Shown here in pieces: positions 2,627 through 36,421 of a stretch of DNA of 64,000 nt. The stretch lies in contig OX387200.1 of NCBI GenBank assembly GCA_947561715.1, forward strand, positions 19,284,501 to 19,348,500, in the 5' to 3' direction. Each line of letters opens with the position of its first letter. Within the stretch, counting starts at the first letter, position 1. A program made the translations under genes and the position numbers. This stretch comes from Ascidia mentula. Taxonomy: Eukaryota; Chordata; Ascidiacea; Phlebobranchia; Ascidiidae. The notes below the pieces were generated by a model. The model was not told where the DNA came from. It saw nothing but the letters and a program-made list of their open reading frames with translations, and searched no databases.

Positions 2627-3043
2627 GTTTAACACCGATGGCTGTTCACTGAACATATATGTACAGTTTTAATCATGTTTGTATAGGAATATATGGTATC
2701 AAACCAATTTTTCATGTGTTTACTACTTCATATACTGCCTTTCAATTGATAATAAACTTGATGTTCTCAATAAAATGTGAATACAAATTGATACCTGTTC
2801 TGAGTATATCTATCACAGTAGTCAGTTATCAATGTTTGCTAATGGCAGTTTGCTAATCTACACTTAGGAGAATGTATTTGTACAAAGTTGACACCAGTCA
2901 TGATGTTCATTGATCACAAAAAATATACAGGGCTGGTTAAAATTGCAGTTAATAGACACCACTGCAGCATGAGGCTAATAAAGCAGCATTCTAACAATAC
3001 TTGATGAATATGGAACTTGCAATAGTTTGTTTGTGTATCAAGT

Positions 3044-3568
3044 TTACTGTTTCTCCATCAGCATATCCATGTAAGCCTTAGTGATGAGATTACTATTTGA
3101 AATGTCAAGCTTGTTCATTAGGTCCCTAGCAATCCTAGCACCATCCTCGACAGTCTGGGATTTGTCCAAGACTACTTCCAGCTCCATAAAGTCCCCAAGG
3201 TCTTTTACCTGGTCAATGTGAACGCGGGTTTGACCAACCATGAAGAGGTGCCTTGTTTTTTCCACAACCCCCTTGCGGCCAAGTGATTTTCCCAACACAT
3301 CGTCCATTGCCTCTGGGTTTGCAACTGGAGAAGTTTGAAACTCTGACAACTTAGGTCCAGATTGGTCTGGTCTCCGATAGAATATAAGTTCGCTATGGGC
3401 TTTATCTGTAGTTTTAACTGAACGCAGCTTCAGCCTTCCTTCAGGGCAGTTGTAAAACACATCCTTTTGTATTAAAACTGTTTTATCTTGATCAGTAATG
3501 GCCTCAGTTAACTTAAGTAAACGTGGCAATGATGTCACAGACGCTTTTATTTCAACATTTCTGGGCAT
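3044..3568 (-). CDS. CYTH-domain protein (CyaB / thiamine-triphosphatase superfamily)
   Basis: An intronless 174-residue frame. The CYTH fold is a beta tunnel that binds triphosphorylated substrates with divalent metal. The N-terminal signature reads RNVEIKA at residues 3-9. This is the ExExK motif with the first Glu replaced by Asn, a form I recall from the small CyaB-like eukaryotic subgroup. Further conserved charged clusters follow: KLRS, ELIFYRRP, DQVKDLGDFMELEV and the C-terminal KAYMDML. Length fits CyaB-like proteins of 170-180 residues rather than the 220-230 residues of mammalian thiamine triphosphatase. The substrate cannot be told from sequence; it may be an inorganic triphosphate or an organic one. 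The gene is divergent from NOC2L with an 806-bp gap that probably holds both promoters. Confidence 0.85.
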   Translation of the reverse strand: MPRNVEIKASVTSLPRLLKLTEAITDQDKTVLIQKDVFYNCPEGRLKLRSVKTTDKAHSELIFYRRPDQSGPKLSEFQTSPVANPEAMDDVLGKSLGRKGVVEKTRHLFMVGQTRVHIDQVKDLGDFMELEVVLDKSQTVEDGARIARDLMNKLDISNSNLITKAYMDMLMEKQ

Positions 3569-4374
3569 TTTGCAGATTTTTCTTCTAAGATTTATTGAAT
3601 AGGCTATGTAAAATTAAGTTTTAGACATGAAAAGTTTTATAAATGCTGGCGTTAATTGACAATAGTAAATAATAGTCATTAAACTTTAAACAGAGAAATG
3701 CTAGCCTAGTAACGTTATTGACGTGCAGACAAGATGAAACAAGGCTATTCTTTATGACTCAAAACAAAGAATGTCAAAAACCTCCACTTTGTTGCGATCT
3801 ATTCTTCAACTTTTGTTGAAACGTTCCTTGCGTCTCGACCTAATGTGTAGCGTAAAATATGCTTAAATGTTACAAACAATTGATAAACCTTCCAGCACAC
3901 TTTTGGCAAAAACGTAATTTCCCGCGATTAGAGATCACGTGACAACCGTGCCTCCAAAATCTGTGAAAATTATGATATTTCTAGAAGCTCAAACGATGGT
4001 AATTTGGCGGATGAAAAAGCATCATATTCTCTGATCCTGTGGCAATACTGTCTATCTCGGATATTATTGTTTCGAAAAAAAAAAACAATAAAGAAACTAA
4101 TTAACTATTTACAAGCTGTTTTAACGAAGTACAAGCTGTTTTATTGTGATGACTTGCTGACACTGCATGCATTGCATTAAATTAGGTAAAAATTATTATT
4201 ACTTACTATAGGCACAAATTTGCCTCGGATATGTGTTTATAGAGATCAGTGGTTCGTGCTCGAGCATACATAACTTGTTCTCATATTTGGGGAGTTCCCG
4301 CAAGCCTTGATCACGTGTGGCAAGCTTTTCAATTGCTATTGTTTTGCTAAAGACTATCATAAAAGAATTTAAAC
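3569..4374. promoter_or_regulatory. Divergent intergenic region between CYTH gene and NOC2L
   Basis: The two genes face away from each other across 806 bp, so their promoters should lie here. No TATA box at a fixed distance from either start is convincing. An A-rich run lies near 4075-4090. Assignment rests on layout only. Confidence 0.35.
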
Positions 4375-10340: not shown

Positions 10341-11136
10341 AATACTTTTGTTGGGGTAAACATTTGTCTGAGAATTTGCTCAAGTTAAACAGATTTGGTA
10401 AGTCAAGTGAGATGGAAACTTTTCAGATGGGGGTTGGAGAAACCTACAAATTATATTATGTCAAACCAACCAAATTGTTGGGGGCTACAAGTCCCCTGCG
10501 TCTTTCAGCCCACGATCAGTTGCACTGGTAGATGATGCAACAATTGGTTTACAAAAATGTTCCCTTTTAGTCCTATTTTTGTCAAGTCTTACTTTAGTTT
10601 TACTCCTGCCATTTAAAGGCAATTAAATACTAAAACTATCAAAATATGTACAAACTTTGCATAGCAGAAAATATTTCCAGGTTAAACTGATTTCTATCAA
10701 GCAAAAACAAAATGTTTCCTGGATGACGTAAATTTTGCAACACTGGAAACATTTCTATGGCAGGATCACTGGTCCGTGAATGAGAACGTGACTTCTGAAC
10801 AACGAACTAAACTAATCAATTAACAAGTGAAGGCAGTTAGAGAAAAATAGCGTCTTATATATGATTCTATGAGGACTAATATTTACCTGCAAACAATTAT
10901 ACGCATGATCCAATCGTAAGTTGTGTGGTAAGTTAACTCTTGCTGTAATTGTTCACTAAAGGTAAAGGGCGGTCAGTTTCCTGTTAAGACTTTATTTGCT
11001 ATTTTGCTTTGCGTCAACTTACTACAAGACTTCGTATTAATGTGAGCATGATGGTTAGTGGTTATTTATCCTACAGTGTATATAATGGGGTGACTACTAC
11101 ATGTGTTGCAGAATCGATGCAATTATAGTTGCTAAC
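10341..11136. other. Intergenic stretch between NOC2L and COX5B
   Basis: No open frame with splice support. An AG at 11110-11111 just before the COX5B start (TTGCAG) could be a cis or spliced-leader trans acceptor; tunicates use spliced-leader trans-splicing, but nothing here proves it. Confidence 0.4.
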
Positions 11137-11604
11137 ATGGCACTTAGACTATTTAACCACGTTGCAAAATCAGCATGTACCATTGTTGAAGCGAGGATAG
11201 CTTTGCTGACCCAGCAAAGTAAAAGAAACAACAGTTCTGTATCACAAGAAGAAAGTAAAAGTCAACCTAGCTCTTCGGAAACAAACAGTTTGGCTGGTAG
11301 AGACAAAGACCATCCTCTTTTAGTTGCATCACATACAAACAAGTGCATTGTTGGGTGTATTTGCAGCACAGATGCACCTACAATGAATTGGTTCTTTATT
11401 GAAGATGGACCTGCACAGACATGTGACTGTGGTTTTTATTTTAAATTGGACAGGGTTGCCAATGATCAATGGATTCCCGAATACTCCCAGATAATGCAGG
11501 TCGATGAAAATCTGCCTGATCCTCGTAAGTCACGACGTGGCCTACCATTTACATACAAACCAATAGAAGGTCCAGTATTTAATCCAAATGAAACTAAAAA
11601 CTAA
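11137..11604 (+). CDS. COX5B: Cytochrome c oxidase subunit 5B, mitochondrial
   Basis: A single exon of 155 residues. COX5B is a nuclear-encoded, zinc-binding subunit of complex IV in the inner mitochondrial membrane. The family core is clear: NKCIVGCIC followed about 20 residues on by QTCDCGFYFKLD, with an aromatic segment NWFF between. The zinc site has CxC then CDCG; vertebrate COX5B has CPCCG, so one residue is missing between the last two ligands here. I chose the ATG at 11137 because it starts a basic, acid-poor presequence (MALRLFNHVAKSA); an in-frame ATG lies 12 codons upstream. A C-terminal extension of about 45 residues rich in Pro and charged residues follows the zinc domain and is absent from the human protein. 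AATAAA occurs near 11939. Confidence 0.93.
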   Translation: MALRLFNHVAKSACTIVEARIALLTQQSKRNNSSVSQEESKSQPSSSETNSLAGRDKDHPLLVASHTNKCIVGCICSTDAPTMNWFFIEDGPAQTCDCGFYFKLDRVANDQWIPEYSQIMQVDENLPDPRKSRRGLPFTYKPIEGPVFNPNETKN

Positions 11605-21159: not shown

Positions 21160-23115
21160 TCACCACTGCACGCTATCAAAACTCATCAACGAAAGTCTTT
21201 CGCTCCCGGAAGAGCAACTGCTACTGTCCGTCATAAGCAGGGGCTGTGATATTTTTGCCCACATTTCTTTCGTCTTCTCGGCACTTTGCCTGATCGCTGT
21301 CCAGCTCTTCAATATCCCGATGCTACGTTTTACCTCCAGGGGGACAGGAATTGAGTCGTCTGACAAGCCTGTCACATTTGACAGGGATTTGCTCGCATGT
21401 GAGAGCTTGGGTCTTTCGATGTCCTGATTCTTGTCACTTTTTGATCGTCTGAGTTGTAATGTAAATGACATCTGCGTTCAAAGAACTGTTTGTGCTGTGT
21501 ATGTGTTGATTGACATCCGTATAGTTTTAGTTATATTTCGTTGTTACTGGCGTTGTGTCATAAAATTAGGTCATTTCGCAAACTCACCTTTTGGTTGGAC
21601 TGTTTAGGCCTAATCAATGTTCCAGGCGATTCACCATTATCATCGGAGTCTAGGTTTTGATTCTGCTTGAACGGAATGTTTATTTCGATTACGTCATCTG
21701 AAACGCGGTTCTTCCCCCTTCGGGTAATTACCCATGCCATTAGCAGCATCACCATGAAACCAATATTGATTGCCAGAACTACAACCGTTGTATTTGCGTA
21801 CGTGGTGATGGCGTCATTGCATCCGCTTTTGTACAATGTCAAAGGAAACAGCGATGTAGCTCCAATTGTGACGTCACTTACGGAGAATTCGGTTGAAAGT
21901 TCCTCGAAGAAAGGGTCATCGGTTGACACGAGATCCGTTTGCGGTTGTGTGTTATTCGGACAACTAGAGGTCGATTTACAGCAGCTTGTAGGTATTTGCG
22001 ACAGGCTCCAGTCTGTGACGTCGCGCGCTCCACAGCAGCTAAAGATGAACTAAAAAAAGTTGGTATTAACCCACTGTGTATTGTAGTGGTGGCATGACCT
22101 TTTCAAGCGGCCAGGTGACAGTCACGATATAATATACATAAAAACGCCACGGCGCCATCTAGCGGTTGTTGGACACGATACCTGGTACAGTTCCATGTAT
22201 TGCAGGGACTCCGACAAGTCTGTGGAAGTTTGAATTTTGGACATCGTGTTGGCCATGTTTAATCTAAGCATTCCTTCCGCGCCCAGACACAAGCTGATGG
22301 CTACGATGTACAACACAACCGATCCAAGAATTACAAAATACACAGCCTTTCTTCGACATTTTTGTAGGCGATCTTTGGTAATCCTCAGTTCAACTGTTGA
22401 TAACACCTGCATGAAAAAAAATGAGTTGCTTGTTTTTTGATTCAAGATTTGATTTATGCTCAAAGTTTTACCATCGCATAAGGACGTTAATGTGAAATAG
22501 CGTTTTAACTCTCATGGGACAATGCAACTTATAAATGAAAAGAACTCCAAAAGGTTTCATCCCAAGTATTTAGCCCCTGACACAACTTCGGGCTGCCTAC
22601 GTCACTGTTTGTGATACATGATTTCGTAAAATACAAATATTTGTCAGTATTGCTAATGTACCAATGCAAGAAGAAGTACAATTCCACACAGGAGAAGCAG
22701 ATAACTCGAAACGCTGTTGACGTACTTGTCTTCCAAACCAACGTATGCCTCATTGAATAACGACACTACGTCTGTGACGTAATTGGCAGGGATTATTTGC
22801 GCATAGAAAAATTGCGCAATTATGCCCCAGATTATCTGGCACAGGCTTGCTGCAACGGCCACAATAAAGATGGTAATGTAGGAAGCTACCCTCCATCGGA
22901 AAATCTAAAAAGGTAACGGAAAGGAAGTAGTTTCCTAGTAGGTTATAAAGTGGATGTAGCATTTATTTCTAGTTTACATCAAAGGCTGATTAGCAACAGT
23001 TCAGCTAAAAAAATAAATGGTTAGGTATTTACAAATACATGACCAACATGGTAAACAACGTAGCCTATAGTTATCGTTAAAGGTTGTTAACGCTCTTGGG
23101 AAAATCGCTTACCAT
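21160..23115 (-). CDS. Tetraspanin with long C-terminal tail
   Basis: Five exons on the minus strand: 23115-23113, 22904-22662, 22406-22182, 22049-21588, 21471-21160, all phase 0, give 414 residues. Tetraspanins are four-pass scaffolds that organise receptors and integrins. Four hydrophobic segments are in the right order. The large extracellular loop begins with the hallmark CCG at residues 162-164 (FSCCGARDVTDW), followed by PTSCC and a later GC, the tetraspanin disulfide pattern. The last helix is followed by a cytoplasmic tail of about 160 residues, unusually long for the family, rich in Ser and charged residues. The initiator ATG is the last codon of exon 1, directly before the GTAAGC donor; an in-frame TAA lies upstream, so no earlier start is possible in that exon. 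Tail-to-tail with MBTPS2. Confidence 0.85.
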
Positions 23116-30600: not shown

Positions 30601-33600
30601 TTTACTGAATGAAGGGCCAGAGTGTACGGCTCGTCCCTCGGCGAGTCACCATCAGAACTGAGAGAGGCTTGAAGCAGGGACTGTGAAATCGGAGGTGATT
30701 CCCCATCTACGGGAAGGGTGCTTGCCGGTTCTGCAATTGTAATGAGGATTTAAAAAATTTCAAATACACCACATTTTTAAAATCCTCTATTATACAGCAA
30801 CAAAAGTAATGACAATATTCAATAGTTTTTTTTCCTATATATCTTAAAACGTCATTAGCTGGGTGAGAATCAGTGTATGTGAAACCAACATATAAAAACA
30901 AACTTATGTATAAACAACTCATCCAGACACATTGATTGCTGAATAATTAGGTAGCTAGCAAGTTTATAATATTCTAAAATAGTTGCTTTTGCATGATTAC
31001 AGGTTTTGTAATACGAGTCACTAAAGGAAATGACAATTACGTCAATACAGCTCATGGATGAATCAAAGCACAGACAGATTTTGTAGAGAAACAAAAACTG
31101 CAGTTCCTCTTTATTACTCACCTGAAGCGTTGCTCAATCCACAGACAGCAGAATTGTTTTCTAAGGTTTTTCTTCGCTTTAAAAGCATCTTCGGACTTGT
31201 TTTAGATCGTCTAAGAAAACAAACTTTTAAACAAAAAATCAATTCTTCATAGTGAGCTGCAAACAGGGCCACTGTTTAGATCTAACAGGTCTCATCAGTA
31301 GAGCTTTGGTGTGACTTTCAACGGTCTTGTCAGGAAAACAGCCATACAAGACTTCCACTTTGTGGTGACCACACAGTTACCTTCAATCATTGTGAACCAT
31401 TGTTTACACATAAAAACAATTGTTTTACTGAAAATGCACTTTGACACATTGGTAAGATTGTTGCTCACTCACTCAGGGGATTCACGATCTCTTTTCAGAT
31501 TCTTTATCCACGGTTTCTCAAACATCCTGAAAAGGCCTGAAGTTCCACGAAACTTTAGCTGGCCGACAGTGTCCAGAAATGCACTCAGCGTCAGTTGTTT
31601 TTGCACATGATCACCAAACAACCTGGGCATTAAAATGATGTGCAATTATCCGCCTTGCTGCAGCTCATTCTGTGGTATATGGATCGAGCTATTTTAACAA
31701 CACAGGGTGTATGGATTTTGTGTTAAGACTGAATGTAAAATTATATCCTCCAGATGTAGTAACGGAAATGGACAAACAATAGAGAATTGCCAACTTACTT
31801 TGCTGATTTCTTGGCTTCTGCCACAAGCTTGTCTTTAACAATGGTTTCCCCTTTGTTTTTCTTGATGTCCGTCAACATACGTCTTTAAATGGTTAGTTTA
31901 CATTTTTTTAAATTATACAAGTTGCACTTGCAAGAACAACATCTCACAAGAGTGTATACTTACAGGAAATCTTGAAATGTCAGGTTTTCATCCATTGTGC
32001 GATCATAAAATCTAAATATGCATCTGCACCTGCAAAATAATAATGGAAAATTAATCACATCATGTCAACTGTGCATTACTAAATTTTGTAAACAGATTAA
32101 TCATCACATTATTTGTAGATCATTGGGTGGTGGTGTTTTTTTATAGCACATACAAATAGGTATTATTACCTGTACTCTGCCATTTTTCCTCCATGTGGCA
32201 CATGAGGTTGCATGAAGTAGACTGCAAGCAGGAACTCATGAAAGGAAATGAAAGATTGCCTCAATTCTGTCATGCAAAAAGACCTGCAAACATCAATATT
32301 TCATATTATCATTTACATTACAATGTTGCACAGTTTTTTATGCACAAACCTAAAGTAATCTTCTTGTCTGAGAGAATCGAATTCTCCCAATACAGTTTCA
32401 CAGAGATTGCCACAAAAACTCTCCAAACTTAGAAAACACGACGGAAAACTTTGACCATAAAATAGCTGACGTAGAAAGAACACTTCCTCTGACTCAAAAT
32501 TCACTGCAGAAAACAGTTTTTCTTGCAAAGTCCTTGGTATTTTGGAATCTACTTTGCTTTGGTGGTCAGTAACCAAGGTGGAAATGCTATTGCAATATTT
32601 TTGGCCATTTTGCTGTTCAGCGTTTAACTGCAGTTCAGTAAGCTCAGAACTCTCGAATTCACCAGTTTCAGTCAAATTTTTGCTGTTTGCTGCCAATGGG
32701 CTTGTAACATAATTTTGATTAAAATCCCAGATACTGTTATTAGGTGCTGCATTTAATGCACTATCTAGTGCAAGTCTTGTGTACAGAATGGGTTCTGGTC
32801 CATAAAGTTTATTTCCACTTTTATTTGTCAAGAACTGGTCAGTCATTTCTTTCATTTCATCTACTGTGAACCACTTAAACATTGTTTCAATGGTTTCGGC
32901 ACCGGACATTTGATCATCATCACACACCTGATCATCAGATGATGGACTTTTGATGTCATTTCTTTCTGAAGAATACATCACAAGATGTGTAAGTAGGATC
33001 CTTTCACTACAACAGTCACACTTTTTGCAAGCACATATTTTGAGTTTTTCGTCTTGTTCAGTTCGTTGTGTGACTGGAAACCTTGAAATGTTGAGAATGC
33101 CGGAGGACTGGAACTCAAATCCAACAACCGACGTTATGAGCTCTTTCAGGGCATCATCAATGTTGTCCTAAAATGTAATGATTTTTTACTGGAATTCACC
33201 CCATCCACTTGAGGGTTGGCTGGTTTTGTAATTCATATAATTCGGATGAAAACATATTTCAACCAAAAGATTTCAACCAAAATGCAATTTGCCTCATATC
33301 TGGCCACTGATAAAAATAATATGTGTATAAGCTAACATCTATGTTTGGAAACTTTGGCATTAAGACTAAAGCTTGACATTTCTGGCACAAACCTTCGGCG
33401 ATATTGGTTGGAATGGTAACCAGTAAGACTCCTTTTTAAGGTGGTTGTCGACCGGCCGAAGGGCACATTTAGAGTTGTCTTTGTTCCATATAAACACTGC
33501 AACGTGCATTTTGGAACCTTAGAAATCACCCCACATATCAATACAGACGATATCTTCACTGTTGTGCCTTCGAAAAAGACAGTAAACCTGTTCCTCTTAT

Positions 33601-34544: not shown

Positions 34545-35534
34545 ATGAGCTGCAGTTCGTGTTTATTCGGAAACTCCAGATACGTTTTCTACACCGATCA
34601 CTTTCGGTCGTATCAAGACGCAGTTGACACTTGCAAGGGCTTGGGAGGTGCATTGGCTGCAATCAACACCGACGACGAACTAACTTCGTTATACAAGTGT
34701 TGCGACAACAGAGAAATGTGGATCGCAACTCAACCAATGGACAACAACGTCACTACTGGAGTTAACTGTCCAACTCTAACAGGAATGGTTAAGTCGAGTG
34801 CATTGTGCAAGGATTGGAAAAACTACGTTTGTCAGTTTTCAACCGGGGTACCGGCAGACGTGATGAACGCCGTTACACCTTCGACTTACTACAGCACCTT
34901 GCTGAGCACGACAACATTACGTGACACAACTGTCCATGCTGTGGGAACAATATCACCATCACTTGGCAATGCTGCCACTACTTTCAATTCTAATGACAGT
35001 CATCAGCATTCTGTCATTTTCTCTTCACCAACACAAGCAGACGTGGTTGCGCTGCCGACTAACAAAATCTTTGTTACTGCATTGGCGGCGGGCAGCGCCG
35101 GGGCAGTCGTCTTGATCTTGGCAATATTAGCCTTTGTTTTCTACTGCCGGACACACGGAAGGTCGACAGATGAAGAAAATTCTGTTAGCAAAAACAACGC
35201 AGTATTCGGGCTTCAGCAGATTGAACCATTTTACTAGTTAGTAATAAAATATTATATACCAAACTTTCCAAAGCGCCTTTTTTTCATACGCATAACTTTT
35301 GGGCTTTGCAGGTCTTACTGTACTGCAATCGAAATTTTTATTTACTTTCAAAATGCCAAATTTCAAATTTGCAGCGAGATTCCCGAGACAGCGGCGCCCG
35401 ATGAGGAGGCGACCTACATGCAAGTTGGTGGACACCTTCAAGATTGGAAACAACAACGATCAGCGACTTACGAAAACCATTTGAAGGAAATCAATGGTTA
35501 CCTTCAGCCGCATCGAAATTTGACTTGGACATAA
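34545..35534 (+). CDS. Single-pass C-type lectin-like receptor with tyrosine-motif tail
   Basis: Exon 1 (34545-35236) has an open frame of 230 codons that would stop at TAG 35235-35237. That TAG overlaps a GTTAGT donor at 35237. Splicing to the acceptor at 35374 (TTTGCAG) removes the stop and adds 53 residues, giving 283 residues and a TAA at 35532-35534. Residues about 6-97 resemble a C-type lectin-like domain (Cys pattern, MWIA motif, final NYVCQF). A Ser/Thr-rich stalk follows, then a membrane helix at about 175-200 and a cytoplasmic tail. The spliced tail has four tyrosine motifs: YEIP (231), YMQV (245), YENH (263) and YLQP (273). YxxP motifs are Crk-type and YxNx is Grb2-type SH2 ligands by known preference. 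No N-terminal signal peptide is visible, so an upstream exon may be missing. The unspliced form would lack the tail. Confidence 0.75.
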
Positions 35535-36421
35535 AAAACGATTTTTGAAAAAAATGCTATACTTTACTTCAGGATTGCATAACACAGGGCAAACATTAAA
35601 ACATGTCTTCATCGTGTATGCAGTATTATGTAGTTTTTAATGGGTTTTTACCTTCTTCGTTGCTACCGATTTGTCAGTTTTCAAAGTGCTTTTGGGCATT
35701 TTTCAAAGTGCTTGCAAGTTCTTGACGTGTAAAATAGGGCATTTTTGAAATTCAAGCAATTACTTGAACTATGAGTTGTAATCACACGACCGGATAGTAA
35801 AGTTGTAAACTGTTTTGACTCATGTGCATTCTCATTTAGCTTGTATATAGGAACATGATTGTATTGAAAATACTCGGGCTCGATTTAGACATTAAACTTT
35901 ATGCAAATGTTTTTTAAATGACAAAACTTGCATGCTGTCACAACATGGCCGGACAGTATTTATTCTTTATTATGCGAGTTACATAATCACGGTTTTCTTG
36001 GTTTGTTCACGTGGTTGTTTTACACAAATGAAATTCATCTTTCGTGTAAATATATGTGAGGATATGTCCGTTCATTGCCAATCCAACAGTAGAGTTTGGT
36101 CATGTTGGATTTGGTCAAGGGAAGAGCTTCTATCACTGACCATTCCACTTTGTCAGAAAAGTAAAATTTCCGCATATCTATGACGTAATTCAATAATAAG
36201 TTAACTGGCAACGCAGGTCGCTTAATCGATAGTGACATAATTTGGAGAACACACGCTAACATACAGTTTAAAACTGTACAAATGAATTTTTGCTTTTGTT
36301 GTGCGCAATATGTTTTACGATGAGCACTAGATTATGCAAATCGGGTCTTCTCAAACTGGGGGAGCCGAATTTTATGGGTCGCAAAAAGTCAATTTCACAC
36401 AAAATACAGCATTTAGTTGTG
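35535..36421. other. Intergenic stretch, nothing assigned
   Basis: A/T-rich, with short unsupported frames only. A segment near 36335-36385 (TTCTCAAACTGGGGG then GGGTCGCAAAAAG) resembles the left end of hAT-type repeats, but no matching right end was found. Confidence 0.4.

What the first reader, a model, noticed from the sequence alone, without database searches (positions are those of the whole stretch)
35231..35534. CTLD receptor stop codon overlaps a splice donor that adds a tyrosine-signalling tail
The open frame ends in TAG, but the G of TAG starts a GTTAGT donor. Joining to the TTTGCAG acceptor at 35374 keeps the frame and adds 53 residues with YEIP, YMQV, YENH and YLQP. YxxP and YxNx are known Crk- and Grb2-type SH2 ligands. 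Intron retention would yield a tail-less receptor, so a splice choice could switch signalling on or off. The pairing is inference, but four tyrosine motifs arising by chance in a 53-residue frame is unlikely.
Basis: partly seen in the sequence, partly recalled or inferred. Interest (0 to 1): 0.75.

Follow-up and report, generated by a model that had tools for sequence, protein, structure and literature searches.

The report
Sea-squirt lectin receptor with spliced tail
A sea-squirt gene for a lectin-like cell-surface receptor appears to continue, after a short intron, into a second exon whose four tyrosines could carry signals into the cell; related genes in the same genome are built the same way, so the stop codon at the splice site looks routine and not like a special switch.

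Summary
The exon structure is well supported by sequence; the "switch" is not. TAG at 35235-35237 overlaps a GTTAGT donor, and joining to 35375 gives 53 in-frame residues with YEIP, YMQV, YENH and YLQP. The best evidence is the gene's own relatives: in 32 loci tabulated (window included; sites placed by anchor or by eye, one of 23 cluster loci dropped) a GT in phase 2 ends the CTLD-stalk-TM exon, and 25 of 32 can reach a tail with at least 3 tyrosine motifs (best acceptor taken). Paralog L006 has the same TAG overlap. In 29 of 32, reading into the intron meets a stop within 0-1 codon, which a phase-2 GTRAGT donor causes automatically. The tail looks coding (GC 48% against 30% in the intron; codon score in the top 1.6% of open stretches). 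A regulated tail-less form stays possible: AATAAA lies 6 nt into the intron and a nearer acceptor at 35311 recreates TAG; neither is backed by transcripts. By-products: an expanded ascidian CTLD receptor family with divergent tyrosine tails.

The parts
34545..35236 (+). Exon A: ATG, CTLD (residues about 1-97), Ser/Thr-rich stalk, TM, juxtamembrane; ends in split codon TA|
   Evidence: translation; paralogs; CTLD by profile
35067..35147 (+). Likely transmembrane stretch IFVTALAAGSAGAVVLILAILAFVFYC (residues 175-201)
   Evidence: read; aligned with the hydrophobic stretch of paralogs; no TM predictor run
35235..35237 (+). TAG stop met if the intron is not removed
35237..35374 (+). Phase-2 GT-AG intron, 138 nt, donor GTTAGT, acceptor TTTGCAG; GC 30%
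   Evidence: phase-2 GT at the corresponding site in the 32 family loci tabulated (placed by anchor or by eye)
35243..35248 (+). AATAAA inside the intron, possible poly(A) signal for a short form; may be chance
35310..35311 (+). AG of a nearer possible acceptor (75-nt intron) that would recreate TAG and give the same tail-less protein
35375..35534 (+). Exon B (tail): 53 residues with the split codon, YEIP / YMQV / YENH / YLQP, stop TAA 35532-35534; GC 48%, coding-like
35595..35600 (+). ATTAAA after the tail stop, candidate poly(A) signal of the long form
   Evidence: by eye

Best explanation
The locus is an ordinary gene, with at least two coding exons, of an ascidian family of single-CTLD transmembrane receptors. 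Exon A gives the extracellular CTLD, a Ser/Thr-rich stalk, the membrane span and a juxtamembrane stretch. A constitutive phase-2 intron follows. Exon B gives a short cytoplasmic tail with tyrosine docking sites. When the CTLD meets its ligand, tyrosine kinases would phosphorylate the tail and recruit SH2 proteins (YENH Grb2-like, YEIP and YLQP Crk-like). The TAG exists only because the last two exon bases, TA, stand before an intron that begins with G. Shown: the anatomy, its recurrence in paralogs, the coding signal. Inferred: splicing itself, surface topology, phosphorylation, partners, any immune role.
For: Paralogs on C67, C70 and C72 have the same CTLD-stalk-TM exon. A phase-2 GT ends that exon in the 32 loci; L006 has the same TAG overlap with donor GTAAGT. 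Joined tails are motif-rich: L006 YENA/YQVP/YVEL, L005 YDNN/YATV/YEAM, L041 YSND/YASI/YATV, and 19 C72 loci with 80-residue tails carrying 3-5 motifs. Those 19 tails have uncorrected pN/pS 0.49. Tail codon score 0.176 against -0.298 for the intron; 1.6% of 8420 open stretches score as high. The family profile matches solved CTLDs: LY75 5.1e-12, CD69 4.8e-7.
Against: No transcript evidence. The tail finds only itself in the genome (E up to 10), so its own residues are not shown to be conserved. The 19 similar C72 tails are recent copies, so few lineages are independent (window, L005, L006, two C72 tail types). The loci were picked by a GTAAG anchor (C72) or by eye, which favours finding a phase-2 GT; L039 has no such site. 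The donor GTTAGT departs from the GTAAGT of most loci tabulated, and the acceptor tract is poor (10 of 19 pyrimidines, against 11 of 19 at 35311). The other two frames of exon B score 0.017 and 0.122, so the codon test separates frames only modestly. Poorly fitting paralogs: L009's nearest clean tail is acidic with one Y and no motif, L030's has one Y, and L011, L020b, L064 and L065 gave no convincing tail; L003's lies behind a 691-nt intron; L040's tail frame is broken.
Confidence: 0.85

Rival explanations
1. Regulated switch: retention of the intron, intronic polyadenylation at AATAAA 35243, or use of the 35311 acceptor makes a tail-less receptor that binds but cannot signal, alongside the long form.
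For: AATAAA 6 nt into the intron; nearer acceptor of similar pyrimidine content that restores TAG; donor departs from the GTAAGT of most paralogs. Botryllus FcoR receptors can swap ITIM and hemITAM by alternative splicing (PMC12065747, passages seen).
Against: The stop is automatic for this phase and found within 0-1 codon in 29 of 32 loci. AATAAA at this spot is in none of the other 31 loci; A[AT]TAAA within the first 150 nt occurs elsewhere in 3 (L005, L030, L065). No transcripts.
Confidence: 0.1
2. The stop is real and the receptor is tail-less; the downstream frame is a chance open frame or a decayed exon.
For: TAG is in frame and AATAAA follows at once. Some paralogs gave no motif-rich tail.
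Against: Phase-2 donor at the corresponding site in the 32 tabulated loci, coding statistics, shuffle test.
Confidence: 0.04
3. Stop-codon readthrough: the unspliced frame is open from 35238 to 35534 (98 aa), so reading TAG as an amino acid would give the tail with an insert from the intron.
For: ORF 35238-35534; intron length 138 = 3 x 46.
Against: The intron does not look coding (score -0.298, GC 30%). Of the 21 C72 introns measured to the tail (176-372 nt), only L051's 372 is a multiple of three.
Confidence: 0.01

Closest known systems
Botryllus schlosseri fester co-receptors (FcoR)
   Same: Ascidian multigene transmembrane receptors with ITIM, hemITAM or Y-x-x-I/L/V tails, some of which swap tail motifs by alternative splicing (PMC12065747, passages)
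   Different: FcoRs have a signal sequence, Ig and sushi domains; here one CTLD, no Ig or sushi found, and no evidence of swapping
Ascidian CD94/NKR-P1-like receptors (BsCD94, CiCD94-1)
   Same: Ascidian transmembrane CTLD receptors of blood cells (PMC5465252, passages)
   Different: CD94-type receptors are described there as type II (tail N-terminal); here the CTLD precedes the TM and the tail is C-terminal. Sequences not compared
Halocynthia roretzi haemocyte membrane glycoprotein with two ITAMs
   Same: Ascidian immunocyte receptor with a tyrosine tail (PMC5465252, passages)
   Different: Window tail has no ITAM spacing; sequence not compared
Vertebrate CTLD receptors CD69, LY75, KLRB1
   Same: Share the CTLD by profile match
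   Different: CD69 and KLRB1 are type II (recalled); LY75 has many CTLDs (recalled)

Membership tests
CTLD superfamily | Profile similarity to CTLDs of known structure, with conserved Cys and Trp | tested here: met
   Profile of 9 family sequences: LY75 5.1e-12, CD69 4.8e-7 (96 sequences at E up to 1, 60 shown, weaker ones include non-CTLD hits through the TM part); Y13, C30, W59, C88, C96 invariant
CTLD superfamily | Window protein alone reaches Pfam Lectin_C gathering score | tested here: not met
   18.8 bits against 22.6, E 0.0028; still its best Pfam match
CTLD superfamily | Fold | tested here: inconclusive
   Single-sequence AlphaFold2 model, mean pLDDT 47.9, not searched further
Ca2+/sugar-binding CTLD | EPN/QPD and WND motifs (recalled) | tested here: not met
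   Neither motif in the CTLD residues read by eye
ITIM receptor | [ILVS]xYxx[ILV] in tail (recalled) | tested here: not met
   Closest is ATYMQV with A at -2; paralog L006 LTYVEL does fit
ITAM/hemITAM receptor | YxxL/I-x6-8-YxxL/I, or DxYxxL (recalled) | tested here: not met
   No YxxL/I in the 53 residues
Crk/Grb2 docking tail | YxxP and YxNx motifs | tested here: met
   YEIP, YLQP, YENH; partner assignments recalled; binding not testable here
Type I receptor with signal peptide | Signal peptide before the ectodomain | tested here: inconclusive
   None read in window exon A from the ATG; but the frames of L011, L030 and L064 run on upstream of the Met with hydrophobic residues. No signal-peptide program run
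Botryllus FcoR | Ig and sushi domains | tested here: not met
   Pfam scan of exon A lists none at E up to 10
Splice-switched receptor | Both isoforms seen in RNA | not testable with these tools
   RNA-seq ERR10378036 exists but cannot be read here

The most novel reading that the evidence does not exclude
A lineage-expanded family of ascidian CTLD receptors keeps its signalling tail on a separate exon behind a phase-2 intron, so that each gene can make a silent decoy (retention, intronic poly(A) or proximal acceptor) or a signalling form, with tails that differ between members in docking logic (Crk/Grb2-like, ITIM-like, YMxM). Possibly the ectodomain is exported without a cleaved signal peptide.
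Probability: 0.08. Interest if true: 0.7.

Novelty: new variant of a known kind. Interest (0 to 1): 0.38.

Why it matters
It corrects a tempting reading: a stop codon over or just after a splice donor is what a phase-2 intron with a GTRAG donor looks like. It also points to a tandemly expanded ascidian family of CTLD receptors with divergent tyrosine tails, a gene set that bears on how NK-like receptor signalling arose in chordates. In the listings of my paper searches (one search listed 20 of 40) I saw no paper that describes it; the library is open-access only.

Tried and rejected
Sister-species test: not possible; one search states that this genome has no relatives in the collection. Search of the tail alone in the own genome: itself only. 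Single-sequence fold: poor, so no fold search. A signal-peptide exon upstream: in L004, L007, L009 and L031 no AG lies between the upstream in-frame stop and the ATG (read by eye), so no upstream exon can join in frame before those ATGs; only these four were counted this way, and L011, L030 and L064 show hydrophobic residues upstream of the Met, so the question is open. Nearer acceptor as an alternative tail in C72: 15 of 22 loci have, by my pattern, a 58-67 nt intron option giving a 30-residue tail; 15 of 90 sites vary over those 15 copies, without a codon pattern (4, 5, 6 by position); undecided. Organism test by cellulose synthase did not complete; chromosome sizes were used instead.

Full report
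What is there. The frame from ATG 34545 runs 230 codons to TAG 35235-35237. It reads as a C-type-lectin-like domain, a Ser/Thr-rich stalk, a hydrophobic span (residues 175-201) and a juxtamembrane stretch. The G of TAG starts GTTAGT. Removing 35237-35374 (138 nt) joins TA to C and gives 53 residues with YEIP, YMQV, YENH and YLQP, ending at TAA 35532-35534.

Organism. The window lies in contig C67 (22,722,200 bases) of a 195.8 Mb assembly of 79 contigs; C70 is 21,170,000 and C72 19,661,885 bases. The Ascidia mentula genome note lists chromosomes of 22.72, 21.17 and 19.66 Mb, with a span of 197.0 Mb in 95 scaffolds (PMC11109543, first of three parts of the text seen, passages). I take it to be A. 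mentula, chromosome 4. This is an inference from sizes; total span and contig number differ slightly.

The main evidence: paralogs. Searches with the window protein and three family proteins found relatives at C67:4.04-4.06 Mb, C67:10.35 Mb, C67:19.64 Mb, C70:11.75 Mb and a tandem cluster at C72:18.10-18.20 Mb. In one search I tabulated 32 loci including the window: 22 of the 23 C72 loci L034-L056 (L039 dropped: no donor anchor), plus window, L003, L005, L006, L009, L011, L030, L020b, L064 and L065. The C72 sites were found by an anchor that ends in GTAAG, the others by eye at the end of exon A, so the finding of a phase-2 GT is partly by selection. In C72 copies with an intact exon A the frame confirms phase 2...DHGYY AA|G TAA. 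L003 and L005 also end ...DHGYY. L006 ends TGC TA|GTAAGT, the same TAG overlap as the window.

Why the stop is ordinary. A phase-2 donor GTAAGT or GTGAGT read through gives NNG TAA or NNG TGA, so a stop follows by the second codon whatever the exon. In 29 of 32 loci a stop is met within 0-1 codon; the exceptions are L011 (74), L030 (6) and L065 (9). The window donor has T at position 3, so it would escape that stop, but its own codon happens to be TA|G.

What follows the intron in relatives. Taking for each locus the acceptor with most motifs (a choice that favours motifs), 25 of 32 reach a tail with at least 3 motifs: window, L003 (behind 691 nt, doubtful), L005 (147 aa; YDNN, YATV, YEAM), L006 (98 aa; YENA, YQVP, YVEL), L041 and L051 (YASI, YATV), and 19 C72 loci with an 80-residue tail and 3-5 motifs. 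The last are recent copies; uncorrected pN/pS over them is 0.49. The 7 misses are L040 (tail frame broken), L009 (acidic 28-residue tail, or a motif-bearing frame behind a poor acceptor), L030 (one Y), L011, L020b, L064 and L065. L036, L037, L038, L039, L050 and L065 have broken or stopped exon A frames.

Chance. 8 of 3000 dinucleotide shuffles of the downstream DNA give four or more motifs within 60 residues; 16 of 3000 at any length; 473 of 3000 give a tail of at least 53 residues. Of 252 GT[ATG]AGT sites in the window and ten fetched loci, 10 reach four motifs within 120 residues: the window and nine paralog donors. The motif class was set after seeing the tail. On a codon table trained on nine paralog exons and four paralog tails, the tail scores 0.176 bits per codon, its other two frames 0.017 and 0.122, the intron -0.298, exon A 0.107; 1.6% of 8420 open 53-codon stretches elsewhere in the window score as high as the tail, and 1.5% of 872 GC-matched ones. 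Those stretches overlap and include other genes, so they are not independent.

The switch. For it: AATAAA at 35243-35248, a nearer acceptor at 35311 that recreates TAG, and a donor that departs from GTAAGT. Against it: AATAAA stands at that spot in none of the other 31 loci, and there are no transcripts. Donor strength was judged from the consensus (recalled), not scored. I put a regulated tail-less form at about 10%.

Family membership. A profile of nine sequences finds solved CTLDs (LY75 5.1e-12, CD69 4.8e-7). The window protein alone is below Pfam's cut-off. Sugar-binding EPN/QPD and WND motifs are absent (by eye). The tail is neither ITIM nor ITAM. YxxP and YxNx fit Crk and Grb2 SH2 ligands (recalled). 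Botryllus is reported to express homologues of Grb2, Crk and Src/Syk-family kinases (PMC12065747, passages).

Oddity. In the nine sequences that I cut at the Met, that Met stands one to four residues before the first Cys or the start of the CTLD, although the proteins are only 18-25% identical to the window. I read no signal peptide after it. In L011, L030 and L064 the frame continues upstream with hydrophobic residues, so an upstream signal exon in some members is not excluded. Export might otherwise rely on the membrane span as a signal anchor. This was not tested.

Noticed in passing
34545 and paralogs: A Met directly before the CTLD recurs and no signal peptide is visible after it; in L004, L007, L009 and L031 no AG lies between the upstream stop and the ATG, but L011, L030 and L064 have hydrophobic residues upstream in frame.
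   Followed up: partly
L034-L056 (C72:18.10-18.20 Mb): Tandem cluster of at least 23 CTLD receptor loci on one strand, with stalk-length variation (open frames 181-387 aa) and some broken copies.
   Followed up: partly
L034-L056, introns: 15 of 22 C72 loci have a nearer acceptor (58-67 nt intron) giving a similar 30-residue alternative tail NQYKSVFHY...; coding status undecided.
   Followed up: partly
L039: Exon A frame runs from ...DKPSVST into PANINRSFII without the donor, as if the donor and the start of the intron were deleted.
   Followed up: no
L009 reverse strand, about 2697-3332: A long frame with repeated FAILHL/FATLHL...DKVYxxVSE units some 600 nt after L009's exon; may be an alternative tail or another gene.
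   Followed up: no
window 3044-3613 (-): CYTH domain exon, Pfam E 1.1e-19.
   Followed up: no
window 11086-11604 (+): COX5B-like exon, below Pfam cut-off, E 1e-5.
   Followed up: no
window 21558-22049 (-): Tetraspanin-like exon, just below Pfam cut-off, E 3.5e-7.
   Followed up: no
window 32313-33167 (-): 284-codon open frame with no Pfam match at E up to 0.01.
   Followed up: no
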